NCBI RefSeq assembly: GCF_000026045.1
Contig: NC_007426.1
Span: forward strand, 868,001-932,000
Reading direction: 5' to 3'
DNA length: 64,000 bases
Source of the DNA: Natronomonas pharaonis DSM 2160
Lineage (GTDB): Archaea; Halobacteriota; Halobacteria; Halobacteriales; Haloarculaceae
Below, piece by piece: positions 3,150 to 51,449 of the stretch (the stretch's first letter is position 1; every line of letters starts with the position of its first letter). Under the pieces are notes generated by a model. It was not told the origin of the DNA. It did no database searches and was given only the letters and a program-made list of their open reading frames with translations. The position numbers and the translations under genes are program-made.

Positions 3150-3330
3150 GGTGAACGCAGCTTTCGTGTCAGGTACCCACCGCTAAAGCGGTGGGCTTGT
3201 CAGTGGACTCCCGCTCTGACCACTAGAACCAGTGGTAGGCGAAAACTCACTGTTCGCGTTCACCATCCCTGACTTCAGGGCGACCTGACAGTCCGCCCGT
3301 CCAGCACCAGACTTGAGCCAATGCTGGACA
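3150..3330 (-). ncRNA. Putative omega/reRNA of the tnpB element
   Basis: In TnpB systems the guide RNA scaffold is made from the 3' end of tnpB and the right end of the element. Here the perfect hairpin at 3176-3195 overlaps the stop codon, and the nearby CCACTAGAACCAGTGG (3219-3234) forms a second hairpin. Placement is by analogy with the family; the ends are estimates. Confidence 0.4.
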
Positions 3331-4590
3331 AGACGCCACCCAATATTCCGAGCAGCGTTGTAATCCGCGTGAAGCTCCTTTCCACAGCTCAGGCACTCGA
3401 ACTCGTCACCGTCACGATTATCCTCGTGCGTGAACCCACACTCCGAGTGACTACACCGCTGGGACGTGTACTGTGGCTTCACGTCATCAACGAGGATGCC
3501 GTACTCTTCAGCCTTGTACTCAACAAGAGATTGGAGTTTGTTGAATGCCCACTGTTGGAACTTAGAAGCGTTCGAGATACGCCCTCGAATGTGTTTCAAG
3601 TTCTCGAACGCTATCGCGTCACAATCGTGTCGACGGGCTTCGAGAACCACTGCGAGTGCGACGCGATGCAAGTAATCCTCGCTCCAATTCGAGAATCTGT
3701 CACCAATAGATTTTAGCGTCAAGTGGGCACTGCGAGTGCCTGTCTGTTGCAGCTTTCCACGACGCCGTTCGTACTCCGCACGCTTGTGGTTGAGGTAGTC
3801 TGCGTTGCCGAGGAACGCGCCAGTCGAGGTGACGGCAAGGTAGCCGTCGACGTTCAAGTCTACGCCGAGTACCGCTCCGTACTCGGATGTAGACGCCTCG
3901 TCTTCCTCGCGTTCCTTTTTCATCGACACGTGCAAGTAGTACGTGCCATCACGCTTGTGAAGAGTGGACTCACCACGTTCCCACTCATCATTCTCCCAGT
4001 ATTCTTCGAACGGCGTTCCGCGAGTGTCCTCGGGGACGATGTATTCCGCGGTGACACGGTCTTCTGTAGTTGATAGCGTGCAGTGGTCGTCGTTGTACGT
4101 TATCGTGCGACCGTCGTAGAAGACCACGGTGCCGCGGAATTCTGGTTTACTGGCTTTCTTGCCGTCTTCGAGGATACGGTCTTTGCAGTTTTCGAGTGCG
4201 TTTGCTGCGAGGCTGCGTGCGGCTTGGACGTGGTTTGCAGTGAGGTCTGTCTTTTCACGTACGTCGGAGTACGTGGCGTCGTGGAGTTTGCTCTTGCTGT
4301 CGATTATCTGAGTAGGGTCGTCAGACCAGCCGTAGTCCGCGGCGTGTTGGGCGGCTTGACGGAATTGCTCGAACGTCTCATCGAGAACGCTGTGGGCGTC
4401 CTCGTCAACGTCGAGCTTGATTTCGAGGTTTCTGACGACCGCCACGATTCAAATATTGGGAGTGTATTATTTAAAGACTGTGTTTTTGCGTTGGGGAGTC
4501 AGCCGTGGCTGGATGCGTGGTTTGATTCAGGAGTGACGCGCTTCCTCCGCACGGCTAAAGCCGTGGGGTTCCGCGCTGCCTCTGTATGAT
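3160..4590 (-). mobile_element. IS200/IS605-family element, tnpB only (IS1341 type)
   Basis: The element carries one tnpB gene on the minus strand and no tnpA. A perfect hairpin with 9-nt arms at 3176-3195 overlaps the tnpB stop codon and marks the right end. A second hairpin at 4550-4565 lies upstream of the gene and marks the left end. The left-end sequence (GGAACCCCACGGC, then GGAGGAAGCGCGTCAC) is nearly identical to that of the non-coding element at 19495-19990. Exact borders are estimated, because these elements have no target duplication or terminal inverted repeats. Confidence 0.75.
3183..4445 (-). CDS. tnpB: TnpB, RNA-guided endonuclease of an IS1341-type element
   Basis: This 420-residue protein belongs to the TnpB family, RNA-guided DNA nucleases of IS200/IS605 elements and ancestors of Cas12. 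The three RuvC acidic residues are visible: Asp in GVDLNVDG, Glu in AFENLKHIRGR and Asp in DYNAARNIGWR. A four-cysteine zinc ribbon (CSHSEC, then CLSC) sits between the second and third RuvC motifs, as usual. The N-terminal helical region and length are normal, so the protein looks active. The stop codon lies inside the right-end hairpin, as expected if the guide RNA overlaps the 3' end of the gene. No tnpA is nearby, so movement would need a transposase supplied in trans. Confidence 0.93.
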   Translation of the reverse strand: MAVVRNLEIKLDVDEDAHSVLDETFEQFRQAAQHAADYGWSDDPTQIIDSKSKLHDATYSDVREKTDLTANHVQAARSLAANALENCKDRILEDGKKASKPEFRGTVVFYDGRTITYNDDHCTLSTTEDRVTAEYIVPEDTRGTPFEEYWENDEWERGESTLHKRDGTYYLHVSMKKEREEDEASTSEYGAVLGVDLNVDGYLAVTSTGAFLGNADYLNHKRAEYERRRGKLQQTGTRSAHLTLKSIGDRFSNWSEDYLHRVALAVVLEARRHDCDAIAFENLKHIRGRISNASKFQQWAFNKLQSLVEYKAEEYGILVDDVKPQYTSQRCSHSECGFTHEDNRDGDEFECLSCGKELHADYNAARNIGWRLVQHWLKSGAGRADCQVALKSGMVNANSEFSPTTGSSGQSGSPLTSPPL

Positions 4591-10325: not shown

Positions 10326-10475
10326 GACAGCTCTCACTCGCTTTTCCCGTCTTTGCTGAGATTGGCCCCGCGTTTTCGTGTTGCTTCTGTGGACGGTAGG
10401 CCCCTCAGCGTTGGTGCCCGAACCCCGGCCAGCAGCCCGCGAAAAGCTAAACCCGCCAGCCGTCGCACGTGGTGT

Positions 10476-10720
10476 ATGCAGGAAGCCGCACGGAACGCCT
10501 TCGGAGTGCTTCCGACTTGGGCGCAGGTTCTGACGCTTCTGGTCACGGCACTCGTAGGAGCGAAGCTCATTGAGGTGGTCGGCTACTACGCGCTCCATCA
10601 GGCAGATAGATTGGCGAAGGGCGAGTACGACAGCCTGATTATCGAAGAAACCCACGCTGCGCTGTACATCTCAATCTTCCTTGGTGGCATCTATCTGAGC
10701 GCACAGTTCGTTCCTCAAGT
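10476..10720 (+). pseudogene. 5' fragment of a mechanosensitive (MscS-family) channel gene
   Basis: The frame starting at the ATG at 10476 encodes about 81 residues (MQEAARNAFG onwards) with two hydrophobic helices, resembling the N-terminal membrane part of haloarchaeal MscS-family channels. Similarity stops exactly where the tnpB-element end sequence GTAAACTACCCC begins (10719-10730). Beyond that the open frame merely reads transposon DNA to 10895. The rest of the channel gene reappears at 12600. Together the pieces lack roughly 90-110 residues covering the pore helix and early beta domain, so the gene is inactivated. Confidence 0.75.
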
Positions 10721-10990
10721 AAACTACCCCGCCCTACGTCGCTCACCCCGAAGGGATTCGCTCGTTGAGGAGGGGGCTTTATCCAGTTTGGTCAAGCCCG
10801 TGTCCCCGTGCAAGGCGAGGCGCGACCTTCATTGCAGGCAAGTCAGCATGAGCGAACAGCGTAGACACTTGGTTGAGTGTCCCGCTTTGGACTGATTCGC
10901 TCACTCATTGCCACTCCCGCTTTAATTATCGGTGACACAAGCGCAGTGTCCCGATATCTGGGGCCAGTTTACTCGTGGCCCACCTCTCCG
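10719..10990 (-). mobile_element. Remnant of a tnpB element (right end plus tnpB tail)
   Basis: The sequence at 10719-10765 matches, in the same orientation, the right end of the element at 49712-49770 (GTAAACTACCCC, a CCCTAC repeat arm and CGCTCGTTGAGG). Further in, the minus strand encodes ATSKLAPDIGTL (about 10930-10970), which resembles the ATSQLALVSGTL tail of the intact TnpB at 11217-12596. The rest of the gene is gone. This is therefore a second, mostly deleted insertion lying head to tail against the intact element. Confidence 0.65.
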
Positions 10991-11049
10991 AGACGTGTGC
11001 TCTGAGAGGCCTGCAATCATACGTTGGTACTGTTGGATTATGTACTTGT

Positions 11050-11137
11050 TGTCGGCTTCCTCCCCACCCTACTCGTTTGTGCTTCCGATTGGGCATCGGA
11101 AGCCCTGCACTCCTTGAGGGTGGGGAGGAAGCCGACA
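11050..11137. repeat. Nested palindrome at the left end of the tnpB element
   Basis: A perfect 21-nt inverted repeat (11050-11070 with 11117-11137) encloses a 46-nt loop. Within that loop a second perfect 9-nt inverted repeat (11081-11089 with 11095-11103, loop of 5) forms an inner hairpin. The pair could fold as a cruciform or a two-tier single-strand hairpin. IS200/IS605 transposases recognise such left-end hairpins in single-stranded DNA. Confidence 0.85.
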
Positions 11138-11216
11138 GTACTCTGTACAACCCAACCCAACCCACATAGCCAGCTCTGACACCCCAAGCGTAGCCTTTAC
11201 GATATAGTAAGCCGAC

Positions 11217-12596
11217 ATGTTGTATATGGTGGAATCGAACCGGACTGTGGTGATTCCCCTCTGGGTTCCAGAAGAATCACGCTCCGACTTCCACCAGACA
11301 ATTCTTCCGTATGCCTACTGCCAGCAGGAAGCAGTTAACCACTGCTGGCCAGATACACCGAAACAGCCAGACGACCTACAAACCAGCAAGCGGGATGTTG
11401 AAGACGCACTCTACGACCGACTTCGGGAGGACACCAACGAACAACTCCACTCGAATCTCGTCCAGAAAGCCATCAAAGACGCAACCAGTGCGATTTCCTC
11501 GTGCAAGACCAGTTGGGAGAACGGCGACCGTATCAGCAAACCTGATTTTTACGACCGTGACCGCGCTGGCTATACGATGACATACGACAAACGAGCCGCC
11601 ACCTACGGTCGGTACGAGGCGACGCTCTCGACGCTCAACGGCACTGTGACTTGCCGATACGAACTGCCAGCGGAACTCGAGGGAACGCCGTACGGCGAGT
11701 ATGTACTGGACAAGCGGTGGTCGTTTTCCACCAGCAAACTCGTCTTTGATGGTGACCGGTTTTGGCTCCATGCGGTGATGCAACGCCAGTTCAGAGATGA
11801 CCCAGTGTATACACCCCAGACGGACGAATCAGGTTCAGACACGCACGAGGACACGCATCGTGTTCTTGGCGTGGACTTGAACGTCGATGGGGCAACTGCG
11901 GTGACTTCAACCGGCCAATTCTACGGGAACGCGGACGCACTCAACGCCTACCGTTCTGAGCAAGAGCAATTACGCGGCGAACTTCAGCAGACAGGGACAC
12001 GAAGTGCTCACCTCCGATTTCAACAGCGGCGTGGCGTCGAGTGGCGATACTACGACCAGTACGCCCACCACGTCGCCAATTCCATCAAACAGGAGGCACT
12101 CCGCGTTCGTGCCACCCACGTCGCCTTCGAGAACTTGACGCGGATTCGCAAACGCATCTCGAATCTGCCCAAGTTCCAGCAATGGCTGTTCAAGAAAGTT
12201 CGCAAGTACACCGAGTACAAGCTGGAACGGTCTGGTGTGACTGTGGATACGACCAAACCAGCCCACACGAGTCAGGCGTGTAGCCGCACAGATTGTGACT
12301 GTGTGGACGAAGACAATCGTGACGGCAAACACTTCGAATGTCTGGAGTGTGGCTACACGGTTAATTCGGATTATAATGCGGCCAAGAACATCGGATTCCG
12401 GTATCTCTGTGAGGAACTATCCAGCCCGGCGAGCCGCACGTGTTCGTCCGGGCAGGCCACGAGTCAACTGGCCTTGGTGTCGGGGACACTCTCACCAACC
12501 GGCGATTTTGCCGAGCATGAGTGGGTGTCCACCGACAAGCCCCACCCTCAACAAGCGAGCGAGTCGTCAGACTCCGAGCGCAGTAGGGTGGGGTAG
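11217..12596 (+). CDS. tnpB: TnpB, RNA-guided endonuclease of an IS1341-type element
   Basis: This 459-residue TnpB may start at 11217 or at the in-frame ATG at 11223 (MVESNRTVV). The RuvC residues are intact: Asp in GVDLNVDG, Glu in AFENLTRIRKR and Asp in DYNAAKNIGFR. The zinc ribbon CSRTDCDC...CLEC is present. It shares the NVDGxxAVTSTG and QQTGTRSAHL blocks with the TnpB at 3183-4445, so they are the same subfamily. The last 40 residues read through the right-end inverted repeat, so the tail is transposon-end sequence rather than a protein domain. The insertion splits an MscS-type gene. Confidence 0.92.
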   Translation: MLYMVESNRTVVIPLWVPEESRSDFHQTILPYAYCQQEAVNHCWPDTPKQPDDLQTSKRDVEDALYDRLREDTNEQLHSNLVQKAIKDATSAISSCKTSWENGDRISKPDFYDRDRAGYTMTYDKRAATYGRYEATLSTLNGTVTCRYELPAELEGTPYGEYVLDKRWSFSTSKLVFDGDRFWLHAVMQRQFRDDPVYTPQTDESGSDTHEDTHRVLGVDLNVDGATAVTSTGQFYGNADALNAYRSEQEQLRGELQQTGTRSAHLRFQQRRGVEWRYYDQYAHHVANSIKQEALRVRATHVAFENLTRIRKRISNLPKFQQWLFKKVRKYTEYKLERSGVTVDTTKPAHTSQACSRTDCDCVDEDNRDGKHFECLECGYTVNSDYNAAKNIGFRYLCEELSSPASRTCSSGQATSQLALVSGTLSPTGDFAEHEWVSTDKPHPQQASESSDSERSRVG

Positions 12597-12602
12597 TTGA
12601 CG
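12440..12602 (+). ncRNA. Putative omega/reRNA at the right end
   Basis: The 3' end of tnpB and the element end contain the paired arms 12540-12548 and 12585-12593 (CCCCACCCT with AGGGTGGGG). This is where the guide RNA scaffold of TnpB systems is encoded. The guide would be the sequence just beyond 12602, here the remnant of the channel gene. Positions are approximate. Confidence 0.4.
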
Positions 12603-13070
12603 CGGGACAACACGGAGGTTACCGTACCGAACGCACAGATGAACTCGACACAAGTCATCAACGAGTCCGCGCCGGTCCGTCGGCGTCGCATCCGCCTGAA
12701 CATCGGTGTCGCCTACGATTCGGACCTTGCGACCGCCGAGGAAGCCATCGTTGATGCAGCATACGAAGAAGATGTCGTGCTCGATACGCCGGTCCCGAAG
12801 GTTCGGTTTCTGGAGTTCGACGACTCCGCAATCGTCGCACAGCTTCAGTGCCACATCGCACGCCCTAGCCAACGCGATGAAGCACGGCACGGACTCGTTC
12901 AACGTATCGACAAGCGCTTTGACGACGAGGATGTCAAGATTCCCTTCCCGCAACGCGAGGTCACGTTCTTCGAGTCGGGCAACGAAATCTCGATTGCAGA
13001 AGACGACAGCGACGGCCGGACGCAGGCGTTCGACCAACCGGCCCGTGACAGCCGCGAGTTCTCGAACTGA
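12600..13070 (+). pseudogene. 3' fragment of a mechanosensitive (MscS-family) channel gene
   Basis: From about 12600 the plus strand encodes RDNTEVTVPNAQMNSTQVIN and some 137 further residues. This is the characteristic end of the MscS beta domain followed by the alpha/beta vestibule domain (ERI-type RIRLNIGVAYDSD, then KVRFLEFDDSAI). The C-terminus is complete and ends at 13070. It lacks its own credible start: the only upstream start is a TTG inside the transposon end. It pairs with the N-terminal fragment at 10476-10720, confirming an insertion plus an internal deletion. Confidence 0.8.
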
Positions 13071-13074
13071 CGCC

Positions 13075-14031
13075 CTACTCTACTGGCCGCGTATCGAGTT
13101 CGGCCGCGACCGCGGTGAGGGTGTCGCCGGTTATCTCCTCGGCTCTGGACTGTATCTCGGCGACGACCGGCGGCTCAAGCTCCGAACGAATCGTTTCGAG
13201 CCGCTCGCGCTCCCGGCTAACGCGGTTCCGCAGGAACGCCGCACCGGTTCCAGTCTCGTCGGGGTCGGGGTCCGGCGTGAGTTTGTTCACGACCAGCCCG
13301 TCGACGGTGAGGTCGGCCTCCTGAAGCGACTCCAGCGCCCGACGTGTCTCGTGTATCGATAGCTCGTCGGGGTTGAGAACGAAGGTGAAGGCCGCCTCGT
13401 TTCTGAGCACCTCGCCTGCGAACTCGAAGTTCCGTTTTCGTTCCTGTAGCCGGTCGATGATGGGGTCTCCCTCCAGCATCCGTCGGGCCTGTTGGTCGCC
13501 GATGGCCGCCCGCTCGAAGTTCTTGATGCTCTTTTCCCGCTTGTGTCGCAGGCGCTCGACCCATTGTTCGAGGTACTCCGGAAGCGCAAGCAGCCGGAGC
13601 GTGCCGCCGGTCGGCGACGTGTCGAAGACGACACGGTCGTAGTCGTCGGCGTTCTGCATCACGTCGACAAAGCAGTCGAAAAGCGCCGCCTCGTAGGCCC
13701 CCGGCGTTTGATGTGCCATCTCAAGCTGCATCGACACTTCATTGACCATCGCGGGGCTGAGCTGCTGGCCGAGCTGCTGTCGAAGCTCCTGCAGGTGGTC
13801 GTCGACCTCCGCTTGGGGGTCGATTTCCATCGCGTGGAGTCGGTCGTGTGCCGACACCGGCTGCGGCACGTCGCCGAACTGCTGGTCGAACACGTCGGAG
13901 GTGCTGTGGGCCGGGTCGGTTGAGACGACGAGCGTCTCCAGTCCGTCCCGCGCACAGGCGACCCCGTGTGCGGCGGCGACGGTCGTCTTCCCGACGCCGC
14001 CTTTGCCGCCGAAGAACCGAAACGAGACCAT
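13075..14031 (-). CDS. ArsA-like ATPase (MinD/ArsA/GET3 superfamily)
   Basis: Starting at ATG 14031, this 318-residue P-loop ATPase begins MVSFRFFGGKGGVGKTT, the deviant Walker A (KGGVGKT) of ArsA/GET3 proteins. STDPAHSTSDVF follows at about residue 38, and DTSPTGGTLRLLALP is the Walker B/A-loop region. In haloarchaea such proteins act either as GET3-type tail-anchored protein chaperones or in arsenite export. No arsenic genes are nearby, so the role is open. Its ATG overlaps the TGA of the upstream small gene (14031-14327), indicating coupling. Confidence 0.85.
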   Translation of the reverse strand: MVSFRFFGGKGGVGKTTVAAAHGVACARDGLETLVVSTDPAHSTSDVFDQQFGDVPQPVSAHDRLHAMEIDPQAEVDDHLQELRQQLGQQLSPAMVNEVSMQLEMAHQTPGAYEAALFDCFVDVMQNADDYDRVVFDTSPTGGTLRLLALPEYLEQWVERLRHKREKSIKNFERAAIGDQQARRMLEGDPIIDRLQERKRNFEFAGEVLRNEAAFTFVLNPDELSIHETRRALESLQEADLTVDGLVVNKLTPDPDPDETGTGAAFLRNRVSRERERLETIRSELEPPVVAEIQSRAEEITGDTLTAVAAELDTRPVE

Positions 14032-30958: not shown

Positions 30959-32011
<1,053 letters not shown>

Positions 32012-49549: not shown

Positions 49550-49711
49550 CGTATTCGTTGCTACTCATCGAAGTGTGGTAACCCTTGTAGTGCAGCTATC
49601 GAAAAGTGTAGTGCAGTTGTCGAAACGTTACACTATACTACTCGGGCAGCCGCAGCCATCTCGCCCCGTTGGCTCTTTCATTCGACGCTCAGGCCAGCCC
49701 TGGCTTCCTCG

Positions 49712-49897
49712 TGTAAACTACCCCACCCTACTTCGCTCGGTCTGACGACCTCGCTCGTTGAGGGTGGGGCTTTGACGTGGACTCCCGTTCTAGCCACCGA
49801 GCGGTGGCACGGAGAGGCCCGGCTCCCCGTCGAAGGGGCTTCGGTGCTCTGCGGGCGTTGGCCCGCATCGCTAGCGAGACCGTCGGTCTCGCCCAGC
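49712..49897 (-). ncRNA. Putative omega/reRNA with four hairpins
   Basis: Between the tnpB stop and the right end lie four perfect or near-perfect stem-loops (positions in the mobile-element entry). They lie exactly where TnpB guide RNA scaffolds are encoded, and the terminal arms at 49721/49769 close the structure. No protein is encoded. RNA identity is inferred by family, not shown. Confidence 0.45.
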
Positions 49898-51142
49898 TTA
49901 CACGTTCACGGTCATCGTCCCGCCATTCAGCGCAATGTTTACAGATGCGCCTCCGTCGCCGCCAGTCTGGTTGCGACGGAGTAGCCGCCGACAACACCGC
50001 ACCGCCACGTTCTTGCTGGCGTTGTAGTCGGCGTGATTCTCGTACCCACACTTCTGGCACTCGAAATACTCTTGCGTGGGGCGGTTGTCCTCGTGGATGA
50101 ACCCACAGCTGCTGCATCGCTGGGATGTGTAGTAGGCTGGCACTGTCTTCACCTGTGGACTCCGCTCCAACTCCTCAACGTCGATCCCGTAGGCTTTCGC
50201 CTTGTACTCGACGTACTCATACAGGCGGTTAAACCGCCAGCGGTGATGCCACGTCGCTCCCTGTGCCCGTTTGCGGATGTCAGTTAAATCCTCGAAGGCG
50301 ATTATCGAACAGTCGTGTTCGACCGCTTCCTCGATGATCTCGTTGGCGACGATGTGGAGATACTGTTTGTAGTAGGCTGTTTCTTTCTTGCTCACACGCT
50401 GGAGCGTGCGGTGGGCCTCCTGTGAGCCTGCTTGCTGGAGATCGCCGCGGCGTTGCTGGAACTCACGGTGCCAGTGGTCGAGCTCGTCGCCCGTCCAAAA
50501 CGTCCCGGTTGATGCGACAGCGAGGTTTTCGACGCCGAGGTCGATCCCGAGGACTGTGTTGTGCTCGGGGACAGCGGCGTCAGGTTGGGTGCTGTCGGTG
50601 GCTTCCTTGTTCCGTTTGAAGCCGATGTGCAGCCAGAACTCGTCGTCGAAGGGCTTGTAGTGGAGTGTGCTGGTGCGGAACTCCCACTCGTCGCCGTTGA
50701 GGTACTCTTCGAACGGTGTGTTTGTCTCGTCTACCGGGAGAACATAGTCAGCCTCGATACGCCCGTCCACGGTCGACAAGGAAACATGGTCGTCGTGGAA
50801 GGTCGCAGCACGTTTGTCGTAGCGAGCGGTGTCAGCGGTAAACTCGGGTTGGCTAGTGTCTTCGTTCTTTTCGAGTCGTTCGACGCCAGCTTTGACGGCT
50901 TCGACGGCTTGGAAGATGGCTTGCTGGACGAGATTCGCCGTCAAGTCGTGCTCTGCTTTGAGGTCGTGGTAGAGTTCGTCCTTGACGGCGTACTTGGCTG
51001 TTTTTTTGTAGCCGTTGTCGTCCCAGCAGTGGTCGCTGGTTGCGTTCGCACAGTGTTTGTACTGGTCGATAGTTTCGAGAAGTGCGTCGCTGTCGCTGTC
51101 GGCCACGAGAAGTTTGACCGGGAGCGCCCGACGCGCTTCCAT
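49898..51142 (-). CDS. tnpB: TnpB, RNA-guided endonuclease of an IS1341-type element
   Basis: This 414-residue TnpB begins MEARRALPVKLLVADSD. RuvC residues are intact: Asp in GIDLGVENLAVA, Glu in AFEDLTDIRKRA and Asp in DYNASKNVAVR; the zinc ribbon is CSSC...CQKC. It differs in sequence from those at 3183 and 11217, forming a third subfamily. No tnpA is nearby. Confidence 0.92.
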   Translation of the reverse strand: MEARRALPVKLLVADSDSDALLETIDQYKHCANATSDHCWDDNGYKKTAKYAVKDELYHDLKAEHDLTANLVQQAIFQAVEAVKAGVERLEKNEDTSQPEFTADTARYDKRAATFHDDHVSLSTVDGRIEADYVLPVDETNTPFEEYLNGDEWEFRTSTLHYKPFDDEFWLHIGFKRNKEATDSTQPDAAVPEHNTVLGIDLGVENLAVASTGTFWTGDELDHWHREFQQRRGDLQQAGSQEAHRTLQRVSKKETAYYKQYLHIVANEIIEEAVEHDCSIIAFEDLTDIRKRAQGATWHHRWRFNRLYEYVEYKAKAYGIDVEELERSPQVKTVPAYYTSQRCSSCGFIHEDNRPTQEYFECQKCGYENHADYNASKNVAVRCCRRLLRRNQTGGDGGASVNIALNGGTMTVNV

Positions 51143-51449
51143 ACGTGTTTCAATGTTTCCATTTAGTTAAATTATTTTATCAGGTGTTGGGGAGTTGGCC
51201 GAGTGCAGAGAGCAGTGTTAGTGGGGGGACGTGACGCGCTCCTCCCCTCCCTACTGCGCTGTCTGCGGGCGACCCACGAGTCGCCCGCACGGCGAGCGAG
51301 ACCTCTGGTCTCGCCCTGCTTGAGAGACAGGCGTCTCTCTGCGCTGCTCGTCGAGGAAGGGGGCTCCGCGCTATCTTATGCTGACATCGGCCGGCCGTGG
51401 ATGCCGCTCGGCACGAAATACGCGTGGCCGTTCCAGCGTCGCGGCACCG
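51143..51449. other. Gene-free stretch: left end of the tnpB element plus flank
   Basis: No credible gene is seen here. It holds the TATA-rich tnpB promoter area (ATTTAGTTAAATTATTTTATC, just above 51143), the motif GTGACGCGCTCCTCCC at 51231 shared with two other elements, three hairpins (51264-51338), and the flank of the uspA-type gene from about 51375. Confidence 0.6.

What the first reader, a model, noticed from the sequence alone, without database searches (positions are those of the whole stretch)
10476..13070. Mechanosensitive channel gene split by two head-to-tail tnpB insertions with an internal deletion
The N-terminal two-helix part ends at the exact base where one element end begins, and the beta domain resumes right after another element's end. 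Roughly 90-110 residues are missing. The left insertion is reduced to its right end plus a TnpB tail on the opposite strand. A simple insertion would leave no gap, so a second insertion and deletion, perhaps from TnpB cutting or recombination between ends, is implied.
Basis: partly seen in the sequence, partly recalled or inferred. Interest (0 to 1): 0.65.

Follow-up and report, generated by a model that had tools for sequence, protein, structure and literature searches.

The report
Channel gene broken by facing transposons
In a salt-loving archaeon, a mechanosensitive-channel gene was hit by two mobile elements facing each other, and a later deletion between matching hairpin sequences in their ends removed the middle third of the gene; it is a well-resolved example of a known kind of genome decay, not a new system.

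Summary
The split gene is real, but several details change. An MscS-type gene is in two in-frame pieces (81 and 156 codons), each abutting the right end (RE) of an IS605/IS1341-type element. The elements are inverted with left ends (LE) facing, not head-to-tail. The three closest intact relatives each contain exactly 135 more residues, not 90-110: the pore-lining helices and about two thirds of the beta domain. The left element is not just an RE plus TnpB tail. It also keeps most of an LE, so it is a ~0.4 kb non-autonomous element (PATE-like), with two ~0.5 kb relatives in another genome of the same genus. The right element has an open, catalytically intact tnpB but lost its outer ~72 bp of LE. 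The junction between them is a 9-bp sequence, AGGGTGGGG, which is both the outer hairpin stem of the inverted left LE and the inner stem of the right LE. The hairpin loop is in the left element's orientation (78-91% identity against 45-53%). This fits two ordinary insertions after TCAC-type targets, then a repeat-mediated deletion between hairpin stems, which palindromy turns into direct repeats. Such deletions in IS605 elements are already described in haloarchaea. Other intact mscS-type genes remain. Interest is low.

The parts
10476..10718 (+). mscS-type gene, 5' piece (81 codons, N-terminal helices)
   Evidence: blastp to N-termini of the orthologues that also match the 3' piece, best E=9e-23
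10719..11125 (-). Left element: non-autonomous PATE-like IS605-type element on the - strand. RE tip TTTAC at 10719-10723; LE lacks its outermost ~17 bp
   Evidence: RE 85-90% identical to other REs; LE 94.7% identical to L106 LE over 76 bp; two ~0.5 kb relatives, 89% identical to each other, in same-genus genome G011 with the same LE type, internal part and RE
11050..11137 (.). LE-LE junction: 21-bp perfect inverted arms (11050-11070 / 11117-11137) around a 46-nt loop
   Evidence: DNA fold -36 kcal/mol, z=-10 against shuffles; loop inverted relative to the right element's relatives
11117..11125 (+). AGGGTGGGG, the 9-bp deletion junction: outer stem of the left (inverted) LE and inner stem of the right LE
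   Evidence: matches to relatives end at 11125 on - and begin at 11117 on +; it is among the longest repeats shared by facing LEs
11117..12601 (+). Right element, complete except for ~69-72 bp of outer LE
   Evidence: 78-89% DNA identity to complete copies L098, L105-L109 from 11117 or 11122 to the RE tip
11217..12596 (+). tnpB (IS1341-type), 459 aa, open; its stop codon lies inside the RE
   Evidence: PF07282 E=1e-16; D in GVDLN 218-222, E in FENL 304-307, D in SDYNAAKN 384-391 and cysteine pairs present; 80-90% aa identity to seven copies
12597..12601 (+). RE tip TTGAC of the right element
   Evidence: conserved up to this base in eight copies, variable after it
12602..13070 (+). mscS-type gene, 3' piece (codon 1 of the piece, ACG, starts at 12600 and uses the last two bases of the RE tip)
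   Evidence: PF21082 E=1e-11 and the end of PF00924; 54-65% identity to orthologues; most orthologues read CTCAC at this site

Best explanation
An MscS-type channel gene (in what is very probably Natronomonas pharaonis DSM 2160) took two independent IS605/IS1341-type insertions on opposite strands, about 405 bp apart. Each followed a TCAC-type target: a small non-autonomous element (PATE) on the - strand and a complete tnpB element on the + strand. Their LE ends faced each other across the middle of the gene. Because each LE hairpin is palindromic, its stems CCCCACCCT and AGGGTGGGG occur as direct repeats when two LEs face each other. A repeat-mediated deletion between the outer stem of the left LE and the inner stem of the right LE removed ~17 bp of left LE, ~405 bp (135 codons) of mscS and ~72 bp of right LE, leaving one AGGGTGGGG. 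The result is a dead channel gene and a fused LE-LE hairpin in which neither element keeps its LE cleavage site, so neither should be able to excise. Shown from sequence: both RE junctions, orientation, gap size, 9-bp junction, loop orientation, missing LE tips. Inferred: order of events, the deletion process (slippage, annealing or microhomology end joining), loss of channel function and loss of mobility.
For: Gap of exactly 135 aa against the three nearest orthologues. Right element matches complete copies only from 11117 on, while 11050-11125 matches their LE on the opposite strand. Loop identity 78-91% inverted against 45-53% direct for five reference LEs, which puts the crossover at the AGGGTGGGG stems and not at CCCCACCCT. 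Stems are among the longest repeats shared by facing LEs; only 37 of 2000 shuffled LE pairs share any 9-mer. Complete LEs begin C..ATTCGAGGCGGAGG after TCAC or TTAC in almost all of 19 copies; that tip is absent on both sides here. Four relatives (L056, L057, G049/L085, L013) read CTCAC at the right insertion site. PATE relatives with both ends in G011. Three IS200-type tnpA genes elsewhere in the genome could have mobilised both. Repeat-mediated deletions with 7-19 bp repeats, and core deletions between near-terminal palindromes of IS605 elements, are documented in haloarchaea (PMC3119063).
Against: No strain with the pre-deletion state was available, so the deletion is reconstructed from relatives. 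The left target cannot be tested: orthologues L056 and L058 keep the V codon but not the full GTGA. The pattern of two fused LEs was found nowhere else in 391 haloarchaeal genomes, so recurrence is not shown.
Confidence: 0.85

Rival explanations
1. The deletion was made by a double-strand break from TnpB cutting at its RE-flank-guided site, followed by microhomology-mediated end joining.
For: The tnpB is intact and haloarchaea can make deletions by microhomology end joining after self-targeting (PMC7521656). The junction has a 9-bp repeat.
Against: From established knowledge of TnpB, the guides would come from mscS sequence just outside each RE (left of 10718, right of 12602), with cuts inside that sequence. 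That sequence is retained and still abuts each RE, and the breakpoints lie in the LE hairpins. TnpB also cuts the empty site, not the filled one.
Confidence: 0.07
2. Nested insertion: the right element inserted into the left element, and a separate deletion then removed mscS sequence up to the right element's RE.
For: The two elements are adjacent, and nesting of mobile elements is common in haloarchaea (PMC3119063).
Against: The right element lacks its LE tip, so its left side is not an insertion junction. Its RE junction is an ordinary one at a site that reads CTCAC in orthologues. A chance deletion would have to end exactly at the RE tip.
Confidence: 0.03
3. The whole RE-LE-LE-RE structure inserted as one composite unit and replaced the mscS segment.
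For: It is bounded by REs on both sides.
Against: Both LE cleavage sites are missing, and IS605 transposition needs LE and RE on one strand (established mechanism). A single insertion would not remove 405 bp, and no second copy of the fused hairpin exists in the own genome or 390 others.
Confidence: 0.03

Closest known systems
Repeat-mediated deletion in haloarchaea (Dyall-Smith et al. 2011, PMC3119063)
   Same: Short direct repeats (7-19 bp in most of that study's cases, 9 bp here) with one copy left; near-terminal palindromes of IS605-type elements supply the repeats.
   Different: The published cases are core deletions inside one element or indels in host DNA. Here the repeats lie in two inverted elements, and the deletion takes host coding sequence between them and fuses the LEs.
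PATEs, palindrome-associated transposable elements (same paper); HqIRS71 carries part of the TnpB C-terminal region
   Same: The left element is transposase-free, has IS605-type near-terminal hairpins and carries a degenerate tnpB 3' end.
   Different: Different genus and sequence; its LE tip is lost by the fusion.
IS605-family IS1341-type elements of Natronomonas pharaonis (ISNph5-ISNph22; 38 tnpB and 3 tnpA reported in PMC3119063)
   Same: Open tnpB without adjacent tnpA, RE ending in TTGAC or TTTAC, very few close copies in the genome.
   Different: LE truncated, so probably immobile. Whether it has an ISNph number could not be looked up.
MscS-family channel genes of haloarchaea (PF00924/PF21082)
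   Same: Both pieces align to one full-length protein type.
   Different: Interrupted, with 135 residues missing.

Membership tests
MscS mechanosensitive channel (pseudogene) | Both pieces homologous to one full-length protein in order and frame | tested here: met
   ten relatives with both matches
MscS mechanosensitive channel (pseudogene) | Pore-lining helix and complete beta domain present (needed for a working channel) | tested here: not met
   PF21088 absent, PF00924 only positions 45-66 of 68
IS605-type element with IS1341-type TnpB (right element) | TnpB with RuvC D/E/D and zinc-binding cysteines | tested here: met
IS605-type element with IS1341-type TnpB (right element) | RE with conserved tip followed by variable host DNA | tested here: met
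   tip TTGAC conserved, flanks variable
IS605-type element with IS1341-type TnpB (right element) | Complete LE preceded by target tetranucleotide | tested here: not met
   ~69-72 bp of outer LE missing, so it is a truncated member
PATE (left element) | No transposase gene, near-terminal hairpins of IS605 type at both ends | tested here: met
   LE outermost ~17 bp missing
PATE (left element) | Exists as a repeated mobile element | tested here: met
   two relatives, 89% identical to each other, at different sites in same-genus genome G011
Repeat-mediated deletion | A single copy of a short repeat left at the junction, both copies present in parental sequences | tested here: met
   with relatives standing in for the parent
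Repeat-mediated deletion | Comparison of strains with and without the deletion | not testable with these tools
   only one genome per species is held

The most novel reading that the evidence does not exclude
Facing IS605 left ends may be a general deletion hot spot that locks TnpB in place. The stranded TnpB can no longer be excised, but its guide, read from the flanking mscS 3' piece, would still cut any intact mscS allele arriving by recombination or mating, so the broken allele would be maintained by an RNA-guided nuclease.
Probability: 0.06. Interest if true: 0.5.

Novelty: new member of a known kind. Interest (0 to 1): 0.2.

Why it matters
It gives a base-level reconstruction of how two IS605-type elements of opposite orientation destroyed a gene and immobilised each other. 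The palindromic left end itself supplies the direct repeats. It extends a described haloarchaeal deletion process from single elements to pairs of elements with host DNA between them, and it warns that a fused LE-LE hairpin can be mistaken for the LE of one element. The organism still has other mscS-type genes, so no large physiological effect is expected.

Tried and rejected
Rfam found no RNA family in 10400-13200 beyond a chance hit. A search for other fused LE pairs (TCGGCTTCCTCCCCN{38,68}GGGGAGGAAGCCGA) in 391 haloarchaeal genomes found only this site; the pattern was exact, so diverged cases would be missed. 'Head-to-tail' was rejected because the RE tips point outward. A left element consisting only of RE plus TnpB tail was rejected because its LE is present. 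Nested insertion was rejected (see rivals). An apparent LE tip at 11125 was rejected as a true end: complete copies carry a further 17 bp before TCAC. In one search several relatives on the minus strand were read in the wrong orientation; the gap measurement was redone correctly. No conserved neighbourhood was seen: the CstA-like and ArsA-like neighbours are not within a few kb of the gene in the three closest orthologue loci. The exact annotation of this locus in public records could not be read.

Full report
Setting. The window is C1:868001-932000 of a three-contig, 2,749,696-bp genome with a 2,595,221-bp chromosome. From memory these sizes are those of Natronomonas pharaonis DSM 2160. The three IS200-type tnpA genes found here equal the number reported for Natronomonas in PMC3119063, which agrees. 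The organism's name was not given by any tool.

The gene. Codons 1-81 of an MscS-type protein run from 10476 to 10718 and 156 further codons from 12600 to 13070, in the same reading direction. Pfam gives PF21082 (MscS C-terminal) and the last third of PF00924 (beta domain, positions 45-66 of 68) for the second piece. A search of 391 haloarchaeal genomes found closer relatives than the first 60 genomes had. In L056, L057 and L058 (C piece 54-65% identical) both pieces match one open reading frame, and each of the three holds exactly 135 residues between them. Ten relatives give 135-143. In L056 the lost part contains PF21088 (helices 2/3) and most of PF00924. The same genome has six other PF00924 matches over the cut-off, all in frames without stops; five score 64 to 96 bits in frames of 288-434 aa, the sixth is weaker. 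None is a close paralogue of this gene: the best is 36-37% identical.

The right element. The closest complete copies (L098 in G343; L105-L109 from named haloarchaea) match window 11117-12601 at 78-89% DNA identity and 80-90% in TnpB. The RE tip TTGAC (12597-12601) is conserved in all copies and followed by variable host DNA. tnpB is open with RuvC residues and cysteines present. In the own genome no close copy exists, only ends and distant TnpBs.

The left element. Its RE (tip TTTAC, 10719) is on the - strand, followed by a degenerate stretch with a tnpB 3' end. The same internal sequence and RE occur in two ~0.5 kb elements, 89% identical to each other, at different sites in G011 of the same genus. 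These have an LE and RE of the same type and no recognisable tnpB. The window's left element also has an LE: 11050-11125 read on the - strand is 94.7% identical to the L106 LE, and the L105 LE is 92.8% identical over a match that runs on to 11043. It is therefore a non-autonomous, PATE-like element of about 0.4 kb, not a leftover RE.

The junction. In complete copies the LE begins C..ATTCGAGGCGGAGG immediately after TCAC (TTAC in one G011 copy), then CCCCACCCT - loop - AGGGTGGGG - AGGAAGCCGAC. In the window neither strand has the tip. Left-LE identity stops at 11125 and right-element identity starts at 11117, so the two overlap by AGGGTGGGG (11117-11125). The 46-nt loop is in the left element's orientation: 78-91% identical inverted against 45-53% direct, over five reference LEs. 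Two LEs that face each other share both stems as 9-bp direct repeats, which are among the longest such repeats. A deletion between the AGGGTGGGG copies gives exactly the observed order, and one between the CCCCACCCT copies would give the opposite loop orientation. The product is a 21-bp perfect inverted repeat that folds at -36 kcal/mol as DNA. With the relatives as proxies, 17 bp of left LE and 69-72 bp of right LE are gone in addition to ~405 bp of gene.

Targets. Four relatives read CTCAC at the right insertion point (L056, L057, G049/L085, L013; L058 reads CTGAC), as expected for an insertion after TCAC. At the left point the orthologues L056 and L058 keep the valine codon (GTA, GTG) that a GTGA target would give, but the fourth base is not conserved, so the left target is consistent but unproven.

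Mechanism. Dyall-Smith et al. 2011 describe repeat-mediated deletions in haloarchaea, mostly with repeats of 7-19 bp, core deletions between near-terminal palindromes of IS605-type elements, and PATEs that keep only the ends of such elements (PMC3119063). The present case has the same features but joins two elements of opposite orientation. Whether the process was slippage, strand annealing or microhomology end joining cannot be told from the sequence. Microhomology end joining is known in Haloferax (PMC7521656). TnpB cutting is not required: by established TnpB biology each guide would match mscS sequence just outside its RE, and that sequence is retained.

Consequences (inferred). The channel gene is dead. 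Both elements lack the LE cleavage site and should be unable to excise. The tnpB may still be expressed.

Verdict. The explanation is an ordinary, already described type of event in an unusual arrangement. Searching 391 genomes for the same fused hairpin found no second case.

Noticed in passing
window 3169-4590 (-): A second tnpB element whose DNA is 98.5% identical over 1.4 kb to a copy at C1 ~2.219 Mb (L096), so this element type moved recently in this genome.
   Followed up: partly
window 49708-51261 (-): A third tnpB element, 94% identical over 1.56 kb to a copy at C1 ~0.484 Mb (L091); its RE ends in GTAGTTTAC.
   Followed up: partly
window 31463-31987 (+): A partial TnpB-like stretch (30% identity over 183 aa) with no close relation to the element studied.
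   Followed up: no
window 12597-13070: The RE tip TTGAC supplies an in-frame TTG, so the mscS 3' piece is an open frame of 157 codons starting inside the element end; no evidence of expression.
   Followed up: no
L144 711-1216 and L145 (G011 C26 and C9): Two copies of a ~0.5 kb PATE-like element in another genome of the same genus, at different sites with TCAC or TTAC before the LE and TTTAC at the RE.
   Followed up: partly
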